From the NCBI RefSeq assembly GCF_001187865.1, contig NZ_LGIT01000012.1, positions 1 through 64,000 on the forward strand: a DNA stretch of 64,000 nt, given 5' to 3'. The position numbers and the translations under genes are program-made. The stretch comes from Klebsiella sp. RIT-PI-d (GTDB taxonomy: Bacteria > Pseudomonadota > Gammaproteobacteria > Enterobacterales > Enterobacteriaceae). The notes beneath the pieces are model-generated. The model was given only the letters and a program-made list of their open reading frames with translations, ran no database searches and was not told where the DNA came from. Below are positions 18,041 to 25,712 of the stretch, one piece after another (position 1 is the first letter of the stretch; each line of letters opens with the position of its first letter).

Positions 18041-19951
18041 TCAAAACCGGCTGACGCACTCCATCGCTACCGCTTTAAACTCGCTAAAATCCTTACAGGC
18101 GCAAAGCCGCGCCATGGCGCGTTCGCGCAGGAACGTGACAAAAATATCGTAGATCGCCATCGCCTCTTCATATTCACTTTTACTGATCGCCAGTAAAAAG
18201 ATCACATGCGCTGTTTCATCGCCCCAGCCGATCCCCTGGGGGGCAATCACCGTATAGACCACGGTTTTCCTCGCCAGCAGGCCCAGGGCGTGCGGCAATG
18301 CAATGCCATCACCCAGCATGGTGCTGACAATCGCCTCTCGCTCGGTGACCGACCCGAGAAATTCAGCATCGACAAAGCCTTCATCCTGTAATTGATTGCA
18401 CAATCGTTTAAACAGCGTTTGTTGATCGACCGGTTCATCGATAAGAAGAAAATGCGCGGCGTCGAAATATTTATTGAGCATCCACGGGCGGGTGCGGTCA
18501 ACCAGCACCAGCTTGCCGATCTGCTCCAGCTGATAGTCGGTCGGAAACGGCGAGATTATCGCCACCGGCTTGTCTTTCTCACTGACCCGCGCGGTAGCAA
18601 TCACAAAATCTTCCCCGATGTTTTCGCATTGTTCATAATCACGCAGGGTCAGCGTGCGCGTAACGTCAATTTGCGGATATTTACGTGCCAGCACCGCTTC
18701 AATCATCCGTGCCATCGCGTTACCGGCATCGCACACCAGCAGCACCCGCGGCTGTCGTTGATAACCGATATTATAATGGCGCTCCAGACCGACGCCGATA
18801 TGCAGCACCAGAAAGCCGATTTCGTTTTCACTGATGGTATACGGCGTGTATTTTCCCCAGCCGGAAACGGCGGCAAGCGTCATATCCCACGCCATCGGAT
18901 AGTGCTGCTTAATATTCTCCAGCAGCGGATTGGGGATCATTATTTGATAACGCACGCGGGTGATCATGGTTTTAATATGGGTCAATAGATCGGCATGAAG
19001 CTGCGTATCGTTAAGCAGGTTGTAATTATAGTGGGTATTGATGTAGTGCAGGATGTAGTTTGCCAGCGCTTCATCATCGTCGGCGTTGATGGCGCTGGGT
19101 GCGATGTCCTGAATCTGACGGGCAGCAATATGAACCCGCAGCCAGTTTTCCTCCGGCGCGCAAAGGGGTTTACCGGCAAGTGTTGCCAGCACTGCAGTAA
19201 GATCGCGTGCGGCCTCGCGCACGTTATCGTCTACCTCTTCAACAGCAAAGTCAGGCAGCGGGTAGCCTTCACTAATGCGGCGCACCGCTACCGCACAATA
19301 CAGGCGTATAAACAGCTCCCCTTCGTCAGTCAGACGAATATGGTGCCGGGTAAAACAGGCGTCCAGCAATGTCGCCAGCTGTTCCGGGACGCCAGCGTTA
19401 AGTGCCACTTCGGTGACCAGCGGGTTAAGGTTATCCTGCTGGGCCAGTTTCCACAGCAGATCCGTCAGACAGGCGCGGATCGCCATTTCGCTGCCGAATA
19501 ATTTCATTCCGTGGCGCGGACGTGTTTCGAGCGTCAGTTGATAGCGCTGGAGCCATTCGCGTACGTCAGCCATGTCGTTTTGTAGCGTAGCACGGCTGAT
19601 AAACCACTCATCGGCCAAGTCTTCCAGCTTGAGTGAAAAAGCCGAGGTAAGGAAACGTACTACCAGATAATACACCCGCTCCTGTCCGCTTCGCGGTATG
19701 CGCAGCGCACGCGGCTGCGTAGTTTTCAGCGTGTGGTAGCGGCCAGGATCGTCAATTTTGAGCTGATAACCGCTGCCGCGACTGAGGATAAACTGCGCGC
19801 CGTGCTGAGCCAGCAGGGCGTTAAGTGCAGTGATATCGGCCCGAACGGTGCGCGTGGACACGGCCAGCCGCTGCGCCAGCTCGTCCTGCGGTAGCGGCTC
19901 GTTTTGCAGCATATCAAACAGCTGCGCTAAACGTTGGTTCGGGAATCGCAC
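18041..19951 (-). CDS. BglG/MtlR-type transcriptional activator (HTH-HTH-PRD-PRD-EIIB-EIIA)
   Basis: 636 residues. An HTH_11 domain (5-60; LAQRLAVSTRTVRADI) is followed by an Mga-like HTH (about 90-165), two PTS regulation domains (about 175-285 and 290-400, with the conserved His in VLHIGVGLERH), an EIIB-like domain with Cys in LLVCDAGNAM (about 410), and an EIIA-like domain with the phosphorylatable His in GIALPHALG (about 558). This is the MtlR/LicR/ManR architecture, whose DNA-binding activity is set by PTS phosphorylation. It is the last gene of the cassette that starts at 25543, on the same strand and 88 bp after the aldolase gene, so it probably controls that cassette. Confidence 0.88.
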   Translation of the reverse strand: MRFPNQRLAQLFDMLQNEPLPQDELAQRLAVSTRTVRADITALNALLAQHGAQFILSRGSGYQLKIDDPGRYHTLKTTQPRALRIPRSGQERVYYLVVRFLTSAFSLKLEDLADEWFISRATLQNDMADVREWLQRYQLTLETRPRHGMKLFGSEMAIRACLTDLLWKLAQQDNLNPLVTEVALNAGVPEQLATLLDACFTRHHIRLTDEGELFIRLYCAVAVRRISEGYPLPDFAVEEVDDNVREAARDLTAVLATLAGKPLCAPEENWLRVHIAARQIQDIAPSAINADDDEALANYILHYINTHYNYNLLNDTQLHADLLTHIKTMITRVRYQIMIPNPLLENIKQHYPMAWDMTLAAVSGWGKYTPYTISENEIGFLVLHIGVGLERHYNIGYQRQPRVLLVCDAGNAMARMIEAVLARKYPQIDVTRTLTLRDYEQCENIGEDFVIATARVSEKDKPVAIISPFPTDYQLEQIGKLVLVDRTRPWMLNKYFDAAHFLLIDEPVDQQTLFKRLCNQLQDEGFVDAEFLGSVTEREAIVSTMLGDGIALPHALGLLARKTVVYTVIAPQGIGWGDETAHVIFLLAISKSEYEEAMAIYDIFVTFLRERAMARLCACKDFSEFKAVAMECVSRF

Positions 19952-20039
19952 GTTGGTGTCCTCTTATATCGCGGTTTGGTTCCGTTTCGTCTGAAAGCCA
20001 GAAGACCAGGAGCTTATGACTGCGGCGGATAAGGGTGAA

Positions 20040-20780
20040 TTACCCCACCAGTTGCTTCGTCATGGCCAGCAGCTGACGCACATCGTCAGGACGGGTATCG
20101 CCACTCACCTTATCAATAATTGAACTGTAAATGTGAGGAATGATTTTGCTTACGCCGGCATCCAGCGCAATCTGCAAAATCTCAGCAAAATTATCCAGAT
20201 CGATTCCCCCGGTCGGCTCCAGCCAGAAATCGTGACGGGCACAGGCTTCCGCTACCGCCTGATATTCGTCACGGCACTGCAGGCCGCCCATCGGGAAATA
20301 TTTTATGGAGCTGCCGCCCAGGTCCTTGAGCAGGGCAATCGCGGTTTCTACCGGTACGATGCCGTCAGGTGCCCGGCTGCTGAGTGGGCCAGTGGAGATT
20401 TTAACCTGCCCCGGCGTGCCGGTTGGTGATACCAGCCCGTTGACCACCGTCTCATTCTGCCCAAGCAGCGCGCGGCTGGCGGCTACGCCAGTAAAAACCT
20501 GATTAACGTGCTGCGGCTGGACGTCGCGGGAAATGGCGCTGACCATCGCCGACTGATTCGGATCGCCCGCGCCCAGCCCTACCGACAGTGCATTATTAAT
20601 AAGCGCAGCATACTCACGCATATCGGCAACCGCACTTGCCACGTCAGGATAGTTTTTGGAGAGCACGCCCACCAGCACATGGCCTTCTGCCGCTTCATAA
20701 ATGGCGCTGGCATTGGCTTTTGAACCTGCCAGCACGTTCAGACAAACGCGGTCACGGTAAAAGTGAGGGGTGAGTTTCAT
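20040..20780 (-). CDS. DgaF-like 2-dehydro-3-deoxy-6-phosphogluconate (KDGP) aldolase family protein
   Basis: 246 residues. It resembles the EF_0839/AHA_3917 family and Salmonella DgaF, a TIM-barrel aldolase cleaving KDGP into pyruvate and glyceraldehyde 3-phosphate. Lys160 in SSIKYFPMGG is the likely Schiff-base lysine (inference), and EPTGGIDLDN forms the phosphate-binding loop. The ATG overlaps the stop of the preceding PLP lyase gene (ATGA), showing translational coupling. Family assignment is firm, but the exact substrate is inferred from Dga homology. Confidence 0.85.
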   Translation of the reverse strand: MKLTPHFYRDRVCLNVLAGSKANASAIYEAAEGHVLVGVLSKNYPDVASAVADMREYAALINNALSVGLGAGDPNQSAMVSAISRDVQPQHVNQVFTGVAASRALLGQNETVVNGLVSPTGTPGQVKISTGPLSSRAPDGIVPVETAIALLKDLGGSSIKYFPMGGLQCRDEYQAVAEACARHDFWLEPTGGIDLDNFAEILQIALDAGVSKIIPHIYSSIIDKVSGDTRPDDVRQLLAMTKQLVG

Positions 20781-21895
20781 GCCATTTTCTCCTGATTAAC
20801 CACTTCGGCAATTCGCCGGGCAACAATATCCAGCTGTGCCGCGTTTACGCTGCGCACATCGGCTTCAATAATGCCTTCATTGGCTTTATAGCCACGAAAG
20901 TAAATGGCGTAGTCGCCCTGTTTCAGCGCGGCGACCAGATCGCCCGTTGCCACGCCGGTTACCGCTTCGTCAAACTTTATTTCGGCGCGGGCAATATCAC
21001 GCCCGGCGCTGTCCCACACCACCCGCGCGGTAATACCATCAAGGGCATTTAGCGCGTTAATAAACGGCGTCATTTTGTTAACCATTTCCGCCCCGCTCTC
21101 TTTTTCAGCGGAGAGATAATGCTCGATGGCGCAGGTCAGGCCAAGAATGCCTTCTTTACCCACTTTCATCGCCCGGCCAATACCCGCAGTCTGCCGCTTC
21201 ACCCACTCAACATACTGCGTTTTACCAATCACCAGCCCGCTGGTCGGCCCTTCAATCGCTTTTGCACCGCTGTAAATCACCAGATCGGCACCGGAACGGT
21301 AGTAGATGTGGAGATCTTCTTCTGCGGCGGCATCAACAATCAGCGGCAGATTGTGCTTACGGGCAACGACCGCCGCCTGCTCCACGCTGAGCATACTTTT
21401 CTGCACGCAGTGGTGAGATTTGATGTACATAATGGCCGCCGTACGCGGCGTGATCGCGGCGGCAAGCTGGTCGGCCGAGCATTCGTTAGCGTAACCCGCC
21501 TCGACAATTTTACCGCCGCCCAGTGCCACCATCGTACCGACCGGCGCGCCGAAGTTAACGTTGTGACCTTTTGGCAGCACGATTTCATTATTTTCAATCG
21601 GGGTGATGTGCAGATTTTCCAGCAGCCAGTCGCTGTCTTTTACCAGTACGGCAGCCACCGACTGGGCCACGCCTGCGGAGGCGCAGGACACCACGGTTGC
21701 ACCCTCGACATCCAGCAGCCGCGCAATATACTCGCCGGTTTTATTAACCAGATCTTTCATTTCGAAATAGTGATTCATGCCGTCCATCGCCGCCTGCACC
21801 ACTTCCGGACGCGGCGTGGAAACCCCCAGCGCCGTCATGCGCCCGGAGGTGTTAATCACCTGTTTTAAACCGTACTTCTCATAGATTGAAGGCAT
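20777..21895 (-). CDS. DgaE-like PLP-dependent ammonia lyase (SelA-related)
   Basis: 372 residues from ATG 21895 (GGGAG 8 bp before); a GTG three codons upstream is possible but lies in the amidohydrolase coding sequence. Fold-type I PLP enzyme of the SelA-like group: Asp188 in LIVDAAAEED binds the pyridine nitrogen and Lys212 in VIYSGAKAIEGP is the expected PLP lysine. Salmonella DgaE eliminates ammonia from D-glucosaminate 6-phosphate to give KDGP, so the same or a similar reaction is inferred. The gene overlaps the amidohydrolase by 17 bp and the aldolase by 4 bp, so all three are coupled. Confidence 0.86.
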   Translation of the reverse strand: MPSIYEKYGLKQVINTSGRMTALGVSTPRPEVVQAAMDGMNHYFEMKDLVNKTGEYIARLLDVEGATVVSCASAGVAQSVAAVLVKDSDWLLENLHITPIENNEIVLPKGHNVNFGAPVGTMVALGGGKIVEAGYANECSADQLAAAITPRTAAIMYIKSHHCVQKSMLSVEQAAVVARKHNLPLIVDAAAEEDLHIYYRSGADLVIYSGAKAIEGPTSGLVIGKTQYVEWVKRQTAGIGRAMKVGKEGILGLTCAIEHYLSAEKESGAEMVNKMTPFINALNALDGITARVVWDSAGRDIARAEIKFDEAVTGVATGDLVAALKQGDYAIYFRGYKANEGIIEADVRSVNAAQLDIVARRIAEVVNQEKMA

Positions 21896-23012
21896 CTTCC
21901 GCACTCCCTTGTTCGGTCGGATAAAGCGTGCCCGCGCGCACGGCGGCGAGCGGGATCAGTAATGTGTCAGCCGCTAAGCTATCGTTCTCAGCATCGACCA
22001 GCAGTGTCGACTGGCGTTTAAGCGTAAAAATGGTCAGATCCGCGTCATATCCCACGGCCAGTCGCCCCTTGTGGGTAAGCCGTAACCCTTCTGCCGCGCT
22101 GGCGGTAACGCACTCAATGACCTGCGGCAGGGACATACCAATGGCGAGGAATTTCGACATCACGTTGGCCAGAGAATACACCGGGCCGTTGATACGATTG
22201 CGGCAGTAAATATCTGAACTGATGGTATGCGGCAGGATGCCCATGCTGATGGCTTTCCGCGCCACCGCAAAGCTGAGGCTGGCGGTTCCGTGCCCGACAT
22301 CCAGCCGCACGCCGCGTTGAATAGCCCGGGTGACAGAGGCCCGCAGCTCCCCGCCCGGCGTAAGGATGCGGTTGGGTTTGCCGTTATAGCAGTGGGTGAT
22401 GATATCGCCGCGGGTCAGGCGTTCGGCAATATCATCAAGATCCGGCGGACTGTTACCAATATGCACCATCAACGGCAAATCACCGTTTTCCTGCTGCATT
22501 ACTTTGGCCTGCTCCAGCGGCGTAATGCCATTATCCCCAACCACGCTACTGCTCATTCGCGCCTTCAGACCGACGATGAAATCGGGATAGCGTTTAACCG
22601 CCTCACGCACCGCATCGCGATCGATATTGGCCATATTCGCCAGTTCGTTCTGGGCAATCAGTCCAACGCGGGAGATGTTCAGTAGCGCATACACCTCCGT
22701 TGTCGCCTGGCGGGTAAGGGTATAAAAATCATCGATATCATCGGCACCGGTACTGCCTGCATCAACGACGGTAGTGACTCCGGTTGCAATGCCAATACTG
22801 TCAGGTTGATCGTGGTAAATCGGGGAGTTGGGGTAGCAGTGGACGTGAGAGTCAATCCAGCCCGCGCTGACATAATATTGACCCTGTAGATCAATATCTA
22901 CCGGAGCCGGGCCGTTAATCTCGCCCAGCGCCGCAATTTTGCCGTCCCGCAGCGCAATATCAGTGACGGTATCGTCGACCAGACGCGCGCGGCGCAGGAG
23001 TACATCAAACAT
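21879..23012 (-). CDS. amidohydrolase / deacetylase family metallohydrolase (EF_0837 type)
   Basis: 377 residues from ATG 23012 behind AGGAGAAAGCT. Amidohydrolase superfamily with a full binuclear set: His56 and His58 in DSHVHCYP, Lys150 (bridging carbamate, IVGLKAR), His184 (VHIGN), His207 (THCYNG) and Asp267 (SSDIY). It falls in the EF_0837/AHA_3915 group, called deacetylase or dihydroorotase-like. With a DgaE-like lyase next in line, removal of an N-acyl or similar group from an amino-sugar acid (or its phosphate) is the likely job; this is inference. All six metal residues are intact, so the enzyme should be active. Confidence 0.85.
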   Translation of the reverse strand: MFDVLLRRARLVDDTVTDIALRDGKIAALGEINGPAPVDIDLQGQYYVSAGWIDSHVHCYPNSPIYHDQPDSIGIATGVTTVVDAGSTGADDIDDFYTLTRQATTEVYALLNISRVGLIAQNELANMANIDRDAVREAVKRYPDFIVGLKARMSSSVVGDNGITPLEQAKVMQQENGDLPLMVHIGNSPPDLDDIAERLTRGDIITHCYNGKPNRILTPGGELRASVTRAIQRGVRLDVGHGTASLSFAVARKAISMGILPHTISSDIYCRNRINGPVYSLANVMSKFLAIGMSLPQVIECVTASAAEGLRLTHKGRLAVGYDADLTIFTLKRQSTLLVDAENDSLAADTLLIPLAAVRAGTLYPTEQGSAEDAFNL

Positions 23013-23074
23013 AGCTTTCTCCTGATAGTGCGGGCGCATGACGCGCCCGCTGGAAGTTACACCTTCTCAGGCAC

Positions 23075-23719
23075 TTAGCTAATCGCAATCGGAAACAGCG
23101 AGCCGAGGATCATCGCGCCGAGGATCGCCCCGCCGGTTATCGGCTTCTGCCAGATGTAAAACAGCAGCGCACCCACCAGCGAGCCAATGCCGATAGGGAT
23201 CGAGGCGGCCATGGCACTGAGGATAATCAATGGCCCGAGAAAACGTCCGGACGCGTTACCCGCCCCCATCATCACATCCGCGCCGTAAGTGGAGTTGCTC
23301 TGGTTGATGGTAAACTTACGCGCCAGAATGATCAGATAGCCAATCGCCAGACCAATCACTAATCCGGTGAAAAGCGACGCGATGAAGTTCTCAACCGGAA
23401 AAACAAATCCGGCTCCCAGCAGCAGCGCCGGAACGCCAAGACCCACACCGGTCTGGATCGCGCCGCCGATGTCCAGAATACCAACCAGCGAACCTTCGAT
23501 AATACGGGCGAAAAGAAAGCTGGCACCAAAGGCTGCCACCGCGCCGTAAACCCCGGTATCCATACCGGCTTTCAGCATCGCCACAAACGCCACTTCGTTA
23601 AACGCACCAATACCGTAGAGGTAATACATGTGTGTCCCGGCAAATACGCCGGAGGAGAGCAGACCAACGAAGATCGGGAACGACCAGTCGGCATACCAAA
23701 ACCCTTTATTCTGTTCCAT
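23075..23719 (-). CDS. DUF4310 family membrane protein
   Basis: 214 residues, around six hydrophobic segments with many Gly/Ala. Recurrent motifs include GLGVPALLLGAGFVFP and PIAIS at the C-terminus. It belongs to one of the EF_0830-0833 / AHA_391x families that always travel with the SFCGS and PRD proteins. With DUF4311 just upstream it is probably half of a membrane permease. A PTS EIIC/EIID-like role is inference from the soluble partners and the PRD regulators. Inner membrane. Confidence 0.82.
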   Translation of the reverse strand: MEQNKGFWYADWSFPIFVGLLSSGVFAGTHMYYLYGIGAFNEVAFVAMLKAGMDTGVYGAVAAFGASFLFARIIEGSLVGILDIGGAIQTGVGLGVPALLLGAGFVFPVENFIASLFTGLVIGLAIGYLIILARKFTINQSNSTYGADVMMGAGNASGRFLGPLIILSAMAASIPIGIGSLVGALLFYIWQKPITGGAILGAMILGSLFPIAIS

Positions 23720-23730
23720 TGCCGTCTCCG

Positions 23731-24507
23731 TTATTTGCCGCTGAGCGAGTTGTGGATCAGATCGAGCCAGTTCGGCACGGTCAGATTAAAGGATTCGATC
23801 ATTTTCATGTCGAAGCCGCGGAAGAAGGCACTCAGAACAAACAGCGTAATAATCGCGCCCATCATCACTTTGGTGACCCGGTGCCAGCCGCTCTCTTCCA
23901 CGCCCTTACCAATCAGGATCCCCAGTACCAGGCCCGGAACGGCGTTGCCCATGATCAGCTGCGCTGCGCCGCCAAAAATAGTGGCCCAAAAGCCCGATTT
24001 CTTGCCCGCATCAATTGCTGCCAGCCAGAAAATCACCGGCATGATGATGTTAACCAGCAGGTTAGCCGCAGGGACCAGCACCTTCACCGCCGTGACCTGT
24101 AAAGATTCAGGCACCGATGAGGCGGTCAGGTTGAGAAAGGTCACGACGAAGGTGCCAATGATCCCGCAGGCGATGGCCATTTTTTTCGGGTCGTGCATTG
24201 TTTCGCCGACGTTGCGATTTTTGATCATCAGCGCTGCCGCGCCCCAGTTAGGGATAATGCGATGATCAACATCCTGAGTGAATGAACCGGCAGCCACCGA
24301 AGATGCCCAGGCGTTAAAGAAAAAGCCTAAACCAAATGAGAAGTGTGACGCAGGATCGCCTTCACAGGAATTCAGCTCACCTAACGTACGAAATGCCCCC
24401 ATCCCCTGCGTGGTAGGCGCGTGAAACATGCGTGCCGCTCCGGCGCCCACACCCACCCCGACCAGGCCGCCGATGATTAGCGATTTTATTAATATTATCA
24501 GGAACAT
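23731..24507 (-). CDS. DUF4311 family membrane protein
   Basis: 258 residues. An N-terminal helix (2-26) is followed by a conserved segment with CEGDPASHFSFGLGFFFNAW (about 48-67), then about five more helices and an amphipathic C-terminus. It is 11 bp upstream of the DUF4310 gene on the same strand. It is a member of the EF_083x cassette families. The likely role is the second permease subunit; no known transporter signature is visible. The acidic/aromatic CEGDPASHF stretch is a candidate substrate site. Confidence 0.82.
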   Translation of the reverse strand: MFLIILIKSLIIGGLVGVGVGAGAARMFHAPTTQGMGAFRTLGELNSCEGDPASHFSFGLGFFFNAWASSVAAGSFTQDVDHRIIPNWGAAALMIKNRNVGETMHDPKKMAIACGIIGTFVVTFLNLTASSVPESLQVTAVKVLVPAANLLVNIIMPVIFWLAAIDAGKKSGFWATIFGGAAQLIMGNAVPGLVLGILIGKGVEESGWHRVTKVMMGAIITLFVLSAFFRGFDMKMIESFNLTVPNWLDLIHNSLSGK

Positions 24508-24529
24508 GGTTCCGCCCTATTATTGAGGA

Positions 24530-24829
24530 TCAGCGTTGCGTGACAAAATCGACCTTATCAAGATCGATGGCCGTCACGTTGACGGTAACGTCCAGCTCCA
24601 CACTGAACGTCCGTCTTTCCCGGCGCAAAAAGAAGAACAAAAAGGCTTCTTTACGCACCGTTTCATGCGCGTGAACAACCTGCACATCCTGTGGCTCAAT
24701 ACGCAGTAAAATATGCGGCGAGGCTTTCATCACTGCCGCCTGAACGTGGTTGAGGGCATCGGCAAAGGCGCGCGATTTGCCCTCGCCTTTACCCTTGACT
24801 CTCACCGTGGTGGTGAATTGCTCTTTCAT
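24530..24829 (-). CDS. DUF4312 family protein
   Basis: 99 residues, soluble alpha/beta (MKEQFTTTVRVKGKGEGKSR...). The start is taken at ATG 24829, two bases after the SFCGS stop; an in-frame extension would overlap that gene. The ribosome binding site is poor, which suggests translational coupling. Function unknown. It occurs only in this cassette type and may be a small cytoplasmic component of the transporter. Confidence 0.8.
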   Translation of the reverse strand: MKEQFTTTVRVKGKGEGKSRAFADALNHVQAAVMKASPHILLRIEPQDVQVVHAHETVRKEAFLFFFLRRERRTFSVELDVTVNVTAIDLDKVDFVTQR

Positions 24830-24831
24830 GC

Positions 24832-25194
24832 TTATGCGCCGTGCTTCTTCTGCCACGCCTGTACCAGACGTTCGCCCAGCTCTTCTTTATCCATAAAGCC
24901 AAACCCCAGCACGTTGCAGCCTTCGTTGATGGCGGTCACGCCTTCATCAACCGAGCGCATACCGTATTTCGCTTTATAGCCATATTTGGTCTGGGCAGTA
25001 ATCGCTCCGGCCCCGCCGCTGCCGCAGAATGAGATGCCGAAGGTGGCATTTTCAGCTTTCATCATGTCGCCCAGCTTCATGTCTGCCGCCATACCCGGCA
25101 CCACCACGGCACGTCCGCCCGCTTTTTCGACGCCAGCGGCAACTTTCTGGCCTTTCCCTAAACGGTCGCCAATCACTACGGTAATCTGTTCCAT
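24832..25194 (-). CDS. glycine-rich SFCGS family protein, candidate EIIB-like
   Basis: 120 residues from ATG 25194 behind AAGGAGCACAAG; the longer frame upstream is non-coding overlap. It begins with a beta strand and loop (ITVVIGDRLGKGQKV) and carries the family hallmark ISFCGSGGAGAIT with Cys57. A single Cys in a Gly/Ser loop after a beta strand is how PTS EIIB phosphocysteine loops look, so a phosphoryl-transfer role is plausible. This is inference; the fold is not proven here. Confidence 0.83.
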   Translation of the reverse strand: MEQITVVIGDRLGKGQKVAAGVEKAGGRAVVVPGMAADMKLGDMMKAENATFGISFCGSGGAGAITAQTKYGYKAKYGMRSVDEGVTAINEGCNVLGFGFMDKEELGERLVQAWQKKHGA

Positions 25195-25204
25195 CTTGTG
25201 CTCC

Positions 25205-25543
25205 TTAAAGGTTTTCTTTTGCGACTTCGAAGTGAACTGACAGTAGCCAGGCTTCTTCTTCGGGAAGGTTGCCGAATGCTGCGACCACGTCGCGAGCAAG
25301 GGCCATTGAGTCTGGTGAAATTTCGTCGAACAGGCTGGCCTCGACTTCGGGTAATGGCTCGCCGGTGATCGCTCGAAAGGCCATTGCCCGCACGTGGGAG
25401 GTCAGCATCTGCTCCTGTACGGCATTAGGAATAATGTGGTGACGGCCCAGCAGCGCATATACCTGCGGCAACATGCGATCGGCAAGCTCGCCAATCTGCT
25501 CCGTTTGTTCTCCAGCGTCGTTAATGACAGCTCCGTTATTCAC
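25205..25543 (-). CDS. small PRD-domain protein (EF_0829 family)
   Basis: 112 residues from a GTG start. It has a stand-alone PTS regulation domain fold with His in GRHHIIPN (about 35) and in LSVHFEVAKE (about 105), positions fitting PRD histidines. It has no DNA- or RNA-binding domain. It is the first gene of the cassette, 10 bp before the SFCGS gene. It could act as a phosphoryl sink or modulator of the large PRD activator at the other end of the operon; this is inference. Confidence 0.8.
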   Translation of the reverse strand: MNNGAVINDAGEQTEQIGELADRMLPQVYALLGRHHIIPNAVQEQMLTSHVRAMAFRAITGEPLPEVEASLFDEISPDSMALARDVVAAFGNLPEEEAWLLSVHFEVAKENL

Positions 25544-25611
25544 TCGTTGTACCCCGTTTTTGGCTCTGGGATAAAACTACCGTCGGACGTTAATAGTTTG
25601 TAGCGAGTTGT

Positions 25612-25631
25612 TTTCCACTTCGAAGTGGAAA
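25612..25631. promoter_or_regulatory. perfect palindrome, candidate operator of the cassette
   Basis: TTTCCACTTCGAAGTGGAAA, a perfect 20 bp inverted repeat, 68 bp before the first gene. It has no T run and is placed as expected for an operator of the MtlR-like activator or as a 5'-UTR hairpin. Confidence 0.7.
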
Positions 25632-25694
25632 GGCGAGTGGCAAGAGTGATCTGTGCCGCATAAATGGGCTGAATAACGATTATTCACTGGGATA

Positions 25695-25712
25695 TCGTGA
25701 CAAACGTCACAT
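25695..25712. promoter_or_regulatory. CRP-like site
   Basis: CGTGACAAACGTCACAT matches TGTGA-N6-TCACA in nine of ten positions. A class II position would place transcription start near 25662, just before the palindrome, with TTATTC (25676-25671, minus) as possible -10. Confidence 0.65.

What the first reader, a model, noticed from the sequence alone, without database searches (positions are those of the whole stretch)
18041..25711. Nine-gene PTS-like cassette (PRD, SFCGS, DUF4312, DUF4311, DUF4310, amidohydrolase, DgaE-like, DgaF-like, PRD activator): candidate undescribed uptake and catabolic system
All nine genes are on one strand with small gaps or overlaps. Two soluble unknowns (one with a Cys in a Gly loop), two membrane unknowns and two PRD proteins frame a three-enzyme pathway. 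Established: DgaE/DgaF turn glucosaminate 6-phosphate into pyruvate and glyceraldehyde 3-phosphate, and PRD/EIIA/EIIB regulators read PTS phosphorylation. Inference: DUF4310 and DUF4311 with SFCGS and DUF4312 form a new kind of phosphotransferase-type permease. The amidohydrolase then strips an N-acyl or related group before lyase and aldolase steps. No canonical EIIA/EIIB/EIIC is present, which makes the transport chemistry the novel part.
Basis: partly seen in the sequence, partly recalled or inferred. Interest (0 to 1): 0.78.

Follow-up and report, generated by a model that had tools for sequence, protein, structure and literature searches.

The report
Uncharacterised amino-sugar-acid uptake and breakdown operon
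This is a real, widely shared but experimentally unexplained bacterial operon that probably imports an acetylated sugar acid derived from glucosamine, adds a phosphate on the way in, and breaks it down for carbon and nitrogen; the importer resembles no known one clearly and is the part worth testing.

Summary
The nine genes are confirmed on the minus strand (18041-25543) in the reported order. The cluster is catalogued: NCBIfam lists seven of its proteins as 'hypothetical equivalogs'. My paper searches found remarks on EF0839 but no functional study of the cluster. The catabolic half is well supported: COG3964-type deacetylase, DgaE-type lyase, KDPG-type aldolase. The three arginines that hold the 6-phosphate in Salmonella DgaE (docking) are kept in 80 of 80 loci, Enterococcus and Bartonella. 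In 51 of 80 loci a lactonase lies in the operon; its N-terminus looks like a signal peptide, so the external substrate is probably a free aldonate. The window and annotated Klebsiella operons hold no kinase. Phosphorylation during uptake is the simplest reading; two Bartonella plasmids carry an HPr-EI fusion directly downstream. The transporter fold is unresolved: the DUF4311 model failed (pLDDT 49), and SFCGS weakly resembles RpiB, not EIIB. 'No canonical EIIA' is wrong: the activator ends in one. I add a conserved 20-bp palindrome (25612-25631). Best guess for the substrate: N-acetyl-D-glucosaminate.

The parts
25205..25543 (-). stand-alone PRD protein (TIGR03582), first gene of the operon; candidate phosphoryl carrier or regulator
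   Evidence: NCBIfam E 7.5e-40; H50 and H104 invariant in 80 of 80 loci plus Enterococcus and Bartonella
24832..25194 (-). SFCGS glycine-rich protein (PF14272, TIGR03577); Cys57 in a Gly loop; candidate EIIB-like phosphocarrier or RpiB-like binding protein
   Evidence: Pfam 4.7e-60, weak LacAB_rpiB 0.0058; AF2 mean pLDDT 64.5, residues 59-97 under 50; Cys invariant in 39 of 39 and 5 of 5 diverse aligned sequences
24530..24826 (-). DUF4312 soluble protein (TIGR03578), function unknown
   Evidence: NCBIfam 7.9e-41; no hydrophobic segment over the threshold used
23731..24507 (-). DUF4311 membrane protein (TIGR03580), candidate permease half
   Evidence: NCBIfam 9e-156; 5 hydrophobic segments; AF2 model failed, pLDDT 49.1
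23075..23719 (-). DUF4310 membrane protein (TIGR03579), candidate permease half
   Evidence: NCBIfam 1.7e-119; 5 hydrophobic segments here, 6 in the Enterococcus copy
21879..23012 (-). COG3964-type amidohydrolase TIGR03583, proposed N-acetyl-aminoaldonate(-6-P) deacetylase (start inferred from homology; longer frame begins at 23039)
   Evidence: NCBIfam 2.7e-174; PDB relatives 8wzy, 2ics, 2ogj; H65, H67, K159, H193, H216, D276 invariant and shared with 2ogj, R282 invariant and absent from 2ogj
20777..21904 (-). DgaE-family PLP ammonia lyase
   Evidence: TIGR01437 3.1e-181; PDB 7lc0/7lce relative; R306, R337, R351 and H164, H165 match the Salmonella residues
20040..20780 (-). DgaF-type KDPG aldolase
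   Evidence: TIGR03581 2.2e-122; NF047796 4e-116, over its cut-off; PDB 3m0z etc.
18041..19951 (-). HTH-Mga-PRD-EIIA transcriptional activator with a Cys-loop motif before the EIIA domain
   Evidence: Pfam HTH_11, Mga, PRD, PTS_EIIA_2; GIALPH and VCDAGNA motifs
25612..25631 (.). 20-bp palindrome TTTCCACTTCGAAGTGGAAA upstream of the operon, candidate operator
   Evidence: exact (two central bases free) in 78 of 80 relatives; 1 mismatch in L064, 2 in L009 and in Aeromonas L006; the only site in the 4.25-Mb genome at up to 2 mismatches, though the reversed control pattern also has one site; no match in 100 window shuffles
25696..25711 (-). CRP-like site TGTGACGTTTGTCACG
   Evidence: pattern match, one of 2 in the window, 0.25 expected, 5 of 100 shuffles reach 2; in 14 aligned upstream regions TCAC is kept in 13, the full TGTGA-N6-TCAC in 6

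Best explanation
The operon takes up an N-acylated amino-aldonic acid, most likely N-acetyl-D-glucosaminate (GlcNAc1A), and makes pyruvate, glyceraldehyde 3-phosphate, ammonia and acetate from it. In many relatives a secreted lactonase first opens the lactone outside the inner membrane. DUF4311 and DUF4310 form the inner-membrane permease. Phosphate from EI/HPr is passed to the incoming sugar acid, probably through the stand-alone PRD protein and/or the Cys57 loop of SFCGS, with DUF4312 as a partner. Inside the cell the amidohydrolase removes the acetyl group from the 6-phosphate, the DgaE-type lyase removes ammonia to give KDPG, and the DgaF-type aldolase splits KDPG. The PRD/EIIA activator probably switches the operon on through the 20-bp palindrome, with CRP input. 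Shown here: the genes, their families, active-site conservation, the palindrome and the conserved context. Inferred: the substrate, the order of deacetylation and phosphorylation, secretion of the lactonase, which protein binds the palindrome, and every phosphotransfer step of uptake.
For: DgaE phosphate-cluster arginines (R301, R332, R346 of the Salmonella enzyme, assigned there by manual docking, PMC9529869, passages) are conserved in the window, in 80 of 80 loci, in Klebsiella, Enterococcus and Bartonella; E. coli YhfS, a distant relative, has Q, L, R. The aldolase passes the KDPG-aldolase equivalog cut-off. The amidohydrolase aligns with 2ogj and shares its His/Lys/His/His/Asp set; R282 is invariant in 73 of 73 aligned members and absent from 2ogj. 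A lactonase gene is inside the operon in 51 of 80 loci and the 13 N-termini printed look like Sec signals by eye, so the substrate outside is probably a lactone or aldonate without phosphate, yet DgaE expects 6-phosphate. No kinase is in the window operon or the annotated Klebsiella operon; the Enterococcus PfkB used as query matched none of 80 loci. Two Bartonella plasmids carry an HPr-EI fusion right after the activator (domains of one). The transport genes sit before dgaE/F-type genes as in Salmonella dgaABCDEF, whose DgaABCD is a PTS (passages). The enzyme logic matches the unphosphorylated Ong pathway for GlcNAc1A (PMC9537276, passages).
Against: No PTS fold was shown: DUF4310, DUF4311, DUF4312 and SFCGS gave no convincing profile match to ManX, ManY, ManZ, UlaA, UlaB or UlaC (best of these SFCGS-UlaC P 0.0054 over 21 columns), and DUF4311 failed to model. 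SFCGS looks more like RpiB, an isomerase fold, than EIIB. The Enterococcus cluster contains a classical EIIC and a PfkB kinase downstream, and its activator shows no EIIA domain. AA10 LPMO genes, a source of GlcNAc1A, do not co-occur with the cluster (21 of 36 LPMO genomes vs 95 of 198 overall, Fisher p 0.20; none in the window's own genome). HPr-EI could serve the PRD regulators only. The strict glucosaminate-6-P lyase cut-off is not met (380.6 vs 600). Bartonella DgaE has Ala at the H162 position.
Confidence: 0.5

Rival explanations
1. DUF4310/DUF4311 is a new secondary transporter of the free sugar acid, and phosphate is added inside by a kinase encoded elsewhere. PRD, EIIA and HPr-EI are only regulatory, and SFCGS is a binding or accessory protein.
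For: No PTS fold detected. PRD activators can control systems through PTS signals (recalled). The Enterococcus copy has a PfkB kinase downstream. The Ong pathway uses an SSS symporter and a KDG kinase (passages).
Against: The conserved DgaE phosphate pocket implies phosphate before deamination, whereas KdgK acts after it in Ong; the Enterococcus kinase has no homologue at E 1e-10 near any of 80 loci (other kinase families were not searched).
Confidence: 0.3
2. SFCGS is an RpiB-like isomerase or epimerase acting on the sugar acid, so the operon is a catabolic pathway with an extra isomerisation step, and only DUF4310/DUF4311 (with DUF4312) move the substrate.
For: Pfam LacAB_rpiB E 0.0058; hhalign P 1.5e-4 to E. 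coli RpiB, the best of 42 comparisons, P 9.4e-4 to an RpiB profile over 75 columns; RpiB is the top PDB hit, E 0.43.
Against: An EIIB-RpiB control gives P 4.6e-4 from the Cys loop alone, 18 columns. Below Pfam's gathering score (17.0 vs 24.7). In the alignments SFCGS has no His at the QHN position of RpiB and stops before RpiB's C-terminal Arg/His stretch (residue roles recalled).
Confidence: 0.2
3. The catabolic scheme is right but the substrate is another N- or O-acylated 2-amino-aldonate (for example N-acetylmannosaminate, or a peptidoglycan-derived acid).
For: A MupG-like hydrolase and an EIIC sit inside the Enterococcus cluster. COG3964 relatives act on several N/O-acetyl (R)-acids (recalled). 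NF047797, the strict glucosaminate-6-P lyase model, scores 380.6, below its cut-off of 600.
Against: Catalytic His and phosphate Arg positions of DgaE are kept; R226 near the alpha-carboxylate is Lys in 75 of 80 loci, a conservative change.
Confidence: 0.35

Closest known systems
Salmonella dgaABCDEF D-glucosaminate system
   Same: PTS-linked regulation, a DgaE-type lyase and a DgaF-type aldolase in one operon with transport genes
   Different: DgaABCD is a PTS, mannose family by the title of the original paper (PMC9529869 and PMC4987338, passages); LevR-like sigma-54 activator; no deacetylase named there. Here five PRD/DUF proteins stand in that place and the lyase is below the glucosaminate equivalog cut-off.
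Ong pathway for GlcNAc1A (Pseudoalteromonas prydzensis)
   Same: Deacetylate, deaminate, then on to KDPG
   Different: [quoted passage not shown] Ong proteins were not aligned here.
E. coli yhfS-yhfZ cluster
   Same: Stand-alone PRD (YhfY), small Cys/Gly-loop protein (YhfU, DUF2620), membrane protein (YhfT), SelA/DgaE-like PLP enzyme (YhfS) and a putative hydrolase (php) together; PRD-YhfY P 2.3e-4, SFCGS-YhfU P 0.003
   Different: No sequence homology detected between YhfT and DUF4310/DUF4311; YhfS lacks two of the three phosphate arginines.
NCBIfam TIGR03577-TIGR03583 genome cluster (EF_0829-EF_0839 / AHA_3910-AHA_3917)
   Same: The very same set; seven window proteins score above these cut-offs
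   Different: Those entries are hypothetical equivalogs without assigned function; lactonase, palindrome, HPr-EI and phosphate-pocket evidence are added here.

Membership tests
PTS sugar permease (EII complex) | EIIC/EIID-type membrane domain | tested here: inconclusive
   No profile match to ManY, ManZ or UlaA, but profiles were shallow (Neff about 1.4) and the DUF4311 model failed
PTS sugar permease (EII complex) | EIIB with phosphorylatable Cys or His | tested here: inconclusive
   SFCGS has an invariant Cys in a Gly loop, but no match to a small EIIB profile (P 0.19), and the Cys follows strand 3 in a low-confidence model
PTS sugar permease (EII complex) | EIIA encoded with the system | tested here: inconclusive
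   EIIA-2 domain with the PH motif inside the activator here, in Klebsiella and in Bartonella; none found in the Enterococcus activator
PTS sugar permease (EII complex) | EI/HPr-dependent phosphorylation coupled to uptake | not testable with these tools
   Needs a phosphotransfer or uptake assay; HPr-EI next to Bartonella copies is circumstantial
[quoted passage not shown]
   K213, H162, H163, R301, R332, R346 of the 7lc0 chain all matched in the window; the paper calls the PLP lysine 217, the chain row shows K213, so that one is placed by the alignment
[quoted passage not shown]
   380.6 bits: a relative of the lyase, not the named equivalog; 'DgaE family' TIGR01437 is met (602 vs 385)
DgaF / KDPG aldolase | NF047796 equivalog cut-off 300 bits | tested here: met
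   386.8 bits
COG3964-type amidohydrolase (TIGR03583) | family cut-off and candidate metal-ligand set | tested here: met
   579.5 bits vs 432; H65, H67, K159, H193, H216, D276 match 2ogj (ligand roles recalled)
COG3964-type amidohydrolase (TIGR03583) | deacetylase activity | not testable with these tools
   Needs enzyme assay
RpiB / LacAB isomerase | Pfam gathering score | tested here: not met
   17.0 bits vs 24.7; weak profile similarity only
Ong GlcNAc1A pathway | SSS transporter and kinase gene in the cluster | tested here: not met
   None among the nine window genes by profile, against the description in PMC9537276
Ong GlcNAc1A pathway | OngB/OngC homologues | not tested
   Ong sequences were not fetched or aligned

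The most novel reading that the evidence does not exclude
The four DUF proteins plus the stand-alone PRD form a new kind of phosphotransferase permease for acyl-amino sugar acids, in which an RpiB-like Cys-loop protein takes the place of EIIB and a PRD, so far known as a regulatory domain, passes phosphate from HPr. E. coli YhfTUY would be a second example built by the same plan.
Probability: 0.25. Interest if true: 0.85.

Novelty: new variant of a known kind. Interest (0 to 1): 0.55.

Why it matters
DUF4310 occurs in about half of the sampled genomes of the window's family (95 of 198) and the set is also in Enterococcus, yet my searches found no functional study. It could supply a phosphorylated route for N-acetylglucosaminate, a chitin oxidation product; a recent Aeromonas study looked for Ong genes, found only distant or no OngB/OngC matches, and left other deacetylases and deaminases open (PMC11653859, passages). 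If the permease is shown to phosphorylate its substrate, it adds a transport class to the PTS and gives a template for the E. coli yhf cluster.

Tried and rejected
LPMO link: tested by co-occurrence, no association; the window genome has no AA10 LPMO match, so supply by its own LPMO is rejected here. DUF4310 or DUF4311 as halves of YhfT: suspected by eye, not supported by hhalign. SFCGS structure: pLDDT 64.5; Foldseek best E 0.075 with unrelated rows, VIA-align best Z 7.2, RpiB 6fxl at 5.9 among tied Rossmann-like rows; neither decides RpiB against EIIB. In Foldseek EIIB 3nbm had probability 0.25 and RpiB 3s5p 0.77, both with E about 0.5. The EIIB comparison profile was UlaB plus seven sequences chosen by a Cys-loop motif, so it is small. 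Viral contigs: two scans, no relative. E. coli complete genomes: no near match. Second DgaE homologue in the own genome: only one SelA-level match below cut-off. YhfT in the class sample: 0 of 274. Papers searched: DUF4310/4311/4312/SFCGS, EF_0830-0833 and EF_0839, DgaE/DgaF, COG3964 terms, yhf genes, GlcNAc1A, glucosaminate with phosphotransferase and Salmonella, DUF2620/KDGP aldolase/DgaE family/SFCGS family. Nearest found: PMC7701990 (EF0839 and EF2975 as eda-like, perhaps amino sugar metabolism, possible fitness role; passages), PMC2912369 (promoter of ef_0839 or ef_2975 active in urine; passages), PMC7396535 (dgaEF duplicated in E. faecalis; passages). Firmicutes genomes could not be sampled broadly.
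Full report
WHAT IS THERE. The window carries nine consecutive minus-strand genes between an nrdG-type and a cytochrome b562-type gene (neighbours named by comparison with the annotated Klebsiella locus). Profile searches confirm each family. Seven of the proteins match NCBIfam hypothetical equivalogs named after Enterococcus EF_08xx and Aeromonas AHA_39xx loci, so curators had already noticed the cluster; its function is blank there.

HOW CONSERVED. In 80 of 80, tblastn finds PRD-SFCGS-DUF4312-DUF4311-DUF4310-amidohydrolase-DgaE-DgaF-activator in this order; 51 of 80 also match a lactonase gene between the aldolase and the activator. The window lacks it. DUF4310 is in 95 of 198 sampled genomes of the same family (two of them with fragmented or interrupted matches) and, in a sample of 398 from the phylum, in 12, all of the same family. 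Outside, annotated copies were read in an Enterococcus record with the activator first, inserted EIIC, a 99-aa hypothetical and MupG genes, and a PfkB kinase downstream, and on two Bartonella plasmids, where an HPr-EI fusion follows the activator (domains of the HY406 copy).

CATABOLISM. The Salmonella DgaE work places the substrate phosphate near R301, R332 and R346 by manual docking (PMC9529869, passages). These three are conserved in the window (R306, R337, R351), in 80 of 80 loci and in the Klebsiella, Enterococcus and Bartonella copies; YhfS, a distant relative, keeps one of three. R226, near the carboxylate, is Lys in the window and in 75 of 80 loci. The strict glucosaminate-6-phosphate lyase model is not met (380.6 vs 600 bits), so the exact substrate may differ. 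The aldolase meets its equivalog cut-off. The amidohydrolase shares the candidate metal-ligand set of 2ogj (activity of that enzyme, Atu3266, on N-acetyl-D-amino acids and acetyl-(R)-mandelate is recalled; the paper was not held). In 73 aligned members (69 of 80 loci passed the length and stop filter, plus window, Klebsiella, Enterococcus and Bartonella) R282 is invariant and missing from 2ogj, a candidate phosphate contact (inference).

WHY PHOSPHORYLATION DURING UPTAKE IS THE SIMPLEST READING. The lactonase N-termini printed (12 loci of 51, plus Klebsiella) look like Sec signals by eye; no predictor was run. So the compound outside is most likely a free lactone or aldonate, while the lyase appears to expect a 6-phosphate. 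No kinase is in the window operon or in the annotated Klebsiella operon, and the Enterococcus PfkB used as query matched none of the 80 loci; other kinase families were not searched. In Bartonella HPr-EI follows the activator, before a hypothetical and type VI secretion genes. In Salmonella the related enzymes are encoded with a PTS permease (PMC4987338 and PMC9529869, passages). All this is circumstantial.

WHAT THE TRANSPORT PROTEINS LOOK LIKE. DUF4311 and DUF4310 have five or six hydrophobic segments each. No profile link to ManY, ManZ, UlaA or YhfT was found, but the profiles are shallow. The DUF4311 model is unusable. SFCGS is modelled as a beta-alpha-beta-alpha-beta half with Cys57 just after the third strand and an unconfident second half. 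Its best sequence resemblance is RpiB: Pfam 0.0058, hhalign P 1.5e-4 (best of 42 comparisons) and 9.4e-4, PDB top hit E 0.43. A control pair, EIIB against RpiB, reaches P 4.6e-4 through the Cys loop alone, so the resemblance is suggestive only. The stand-alone PRD keeps H50 and H104 in 80 of 80 loci, Enterococcus and Bartonella.

REGULATION. Upstream of the first gene lies a perfect 20-bp palindrome, TTTCCACTTCGAAGTGGAAA (25612-25631). It is exact, the two central bases free, in 78 of 80 relatives, with one mismatch in L064 and two in L009 and in Aeromonas L006; none with up to 3 mismatches was found in the Enterococcus and Bartonella loci L002 and L003. It is the only site in the genome at up to two mismatches, but a reversed control pattern also finds one site at that looseness, so the weight lies on the exact match and its conservation. 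A CRP-like site lies at 25696-25711; in 14 aligned upstream regions its TCAC half is kept in 13 and the full TGTGA-N6-TCAC in 6. That the linked activator binds the palindrome is inference. The activator has HTH, Mga, PRD and EIIA-2 domains with GIALPH and a VCDAGNA loop; the motif search found no such loop in the Klebsiella activator, one in Bartonella and a different one in Enterococcus. The Enterococcus activator showed no EIIA domain.

PRIOR MENTIONS. PMC7701990, PMC2912369 and PMC7396535 (passages) mention EF0839 or dgaEF of Enterococcus as eda-like, perhaps amino-sugar related, urine-induced or duplicated; none assigns the cluster a function in the passages seen.

NEGATIVE RESULTS. LPMO genes do not track the cluster (21 of 36 vs 95 of 198; Fisher p 0.20; the sample includes reduced genomes, which inflates association). 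YhfT does (21 of 25, p 1.6e-4), but with the same inflation. The own genome has one DgaE-family gene over cut-off, the window's.

VERDICT. A real, conserved, catalogued but unexplained catabolic operon. The catabolic reading is likely (about 0.75), N-acetyl-D-glucosaminate as substrate about even, PTS-type phosphorylating uptake about even, and a truly new phosphotransfer chain about one in four.

Noticed in passing
L003 and L004 (Bartonella HY406/HY761 plasmids): A plasmid of about 55 kb in bat-faeces Bartonella carries the whole cluster with an adjacent HPr-EI fusion gene, near type VI secretion genes.
   Followed up: partly
L006 10410-11042: Aeromonas caviae KAM479 copy has no match to the amidohydrolase or DgaE: the start of DUF4310 runs in one open frame into the end of the aldolase.
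   Followed up: no
L011: A record titled Chryseobacterium holds an enteric-type locus with PmbA, cytochrome b562 and nrdG neighbours; probably contamination or mislabelling.
   Followed up: no
L098 and L100, L109, L114, L115, L118: E. coli yhf cluster is built from similar kinds of parts, and YhfT has a second subfamily 31-35% identical in other enterics.
   Followed up: partly
L002 14382-17117: Enterococcus copy holds a classical EIIC, a 99-aa protein with no Pfam hit and a MupG-like hydrolase inside the cluster, suggesting a disaccharide-phosphate feeding the same pathway.
   Followed up: no
L005 17439-17955: A RelB/RelE-type toxin-antitoxin pair is annotated between the activator and nrdG in the Klebsiella locus.
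   Followed up: no
G679 and G805: Two enteric genomes hold fragmented or stop-interrupted DUF4310 matches; decay or assembly error.
   Followed up: no
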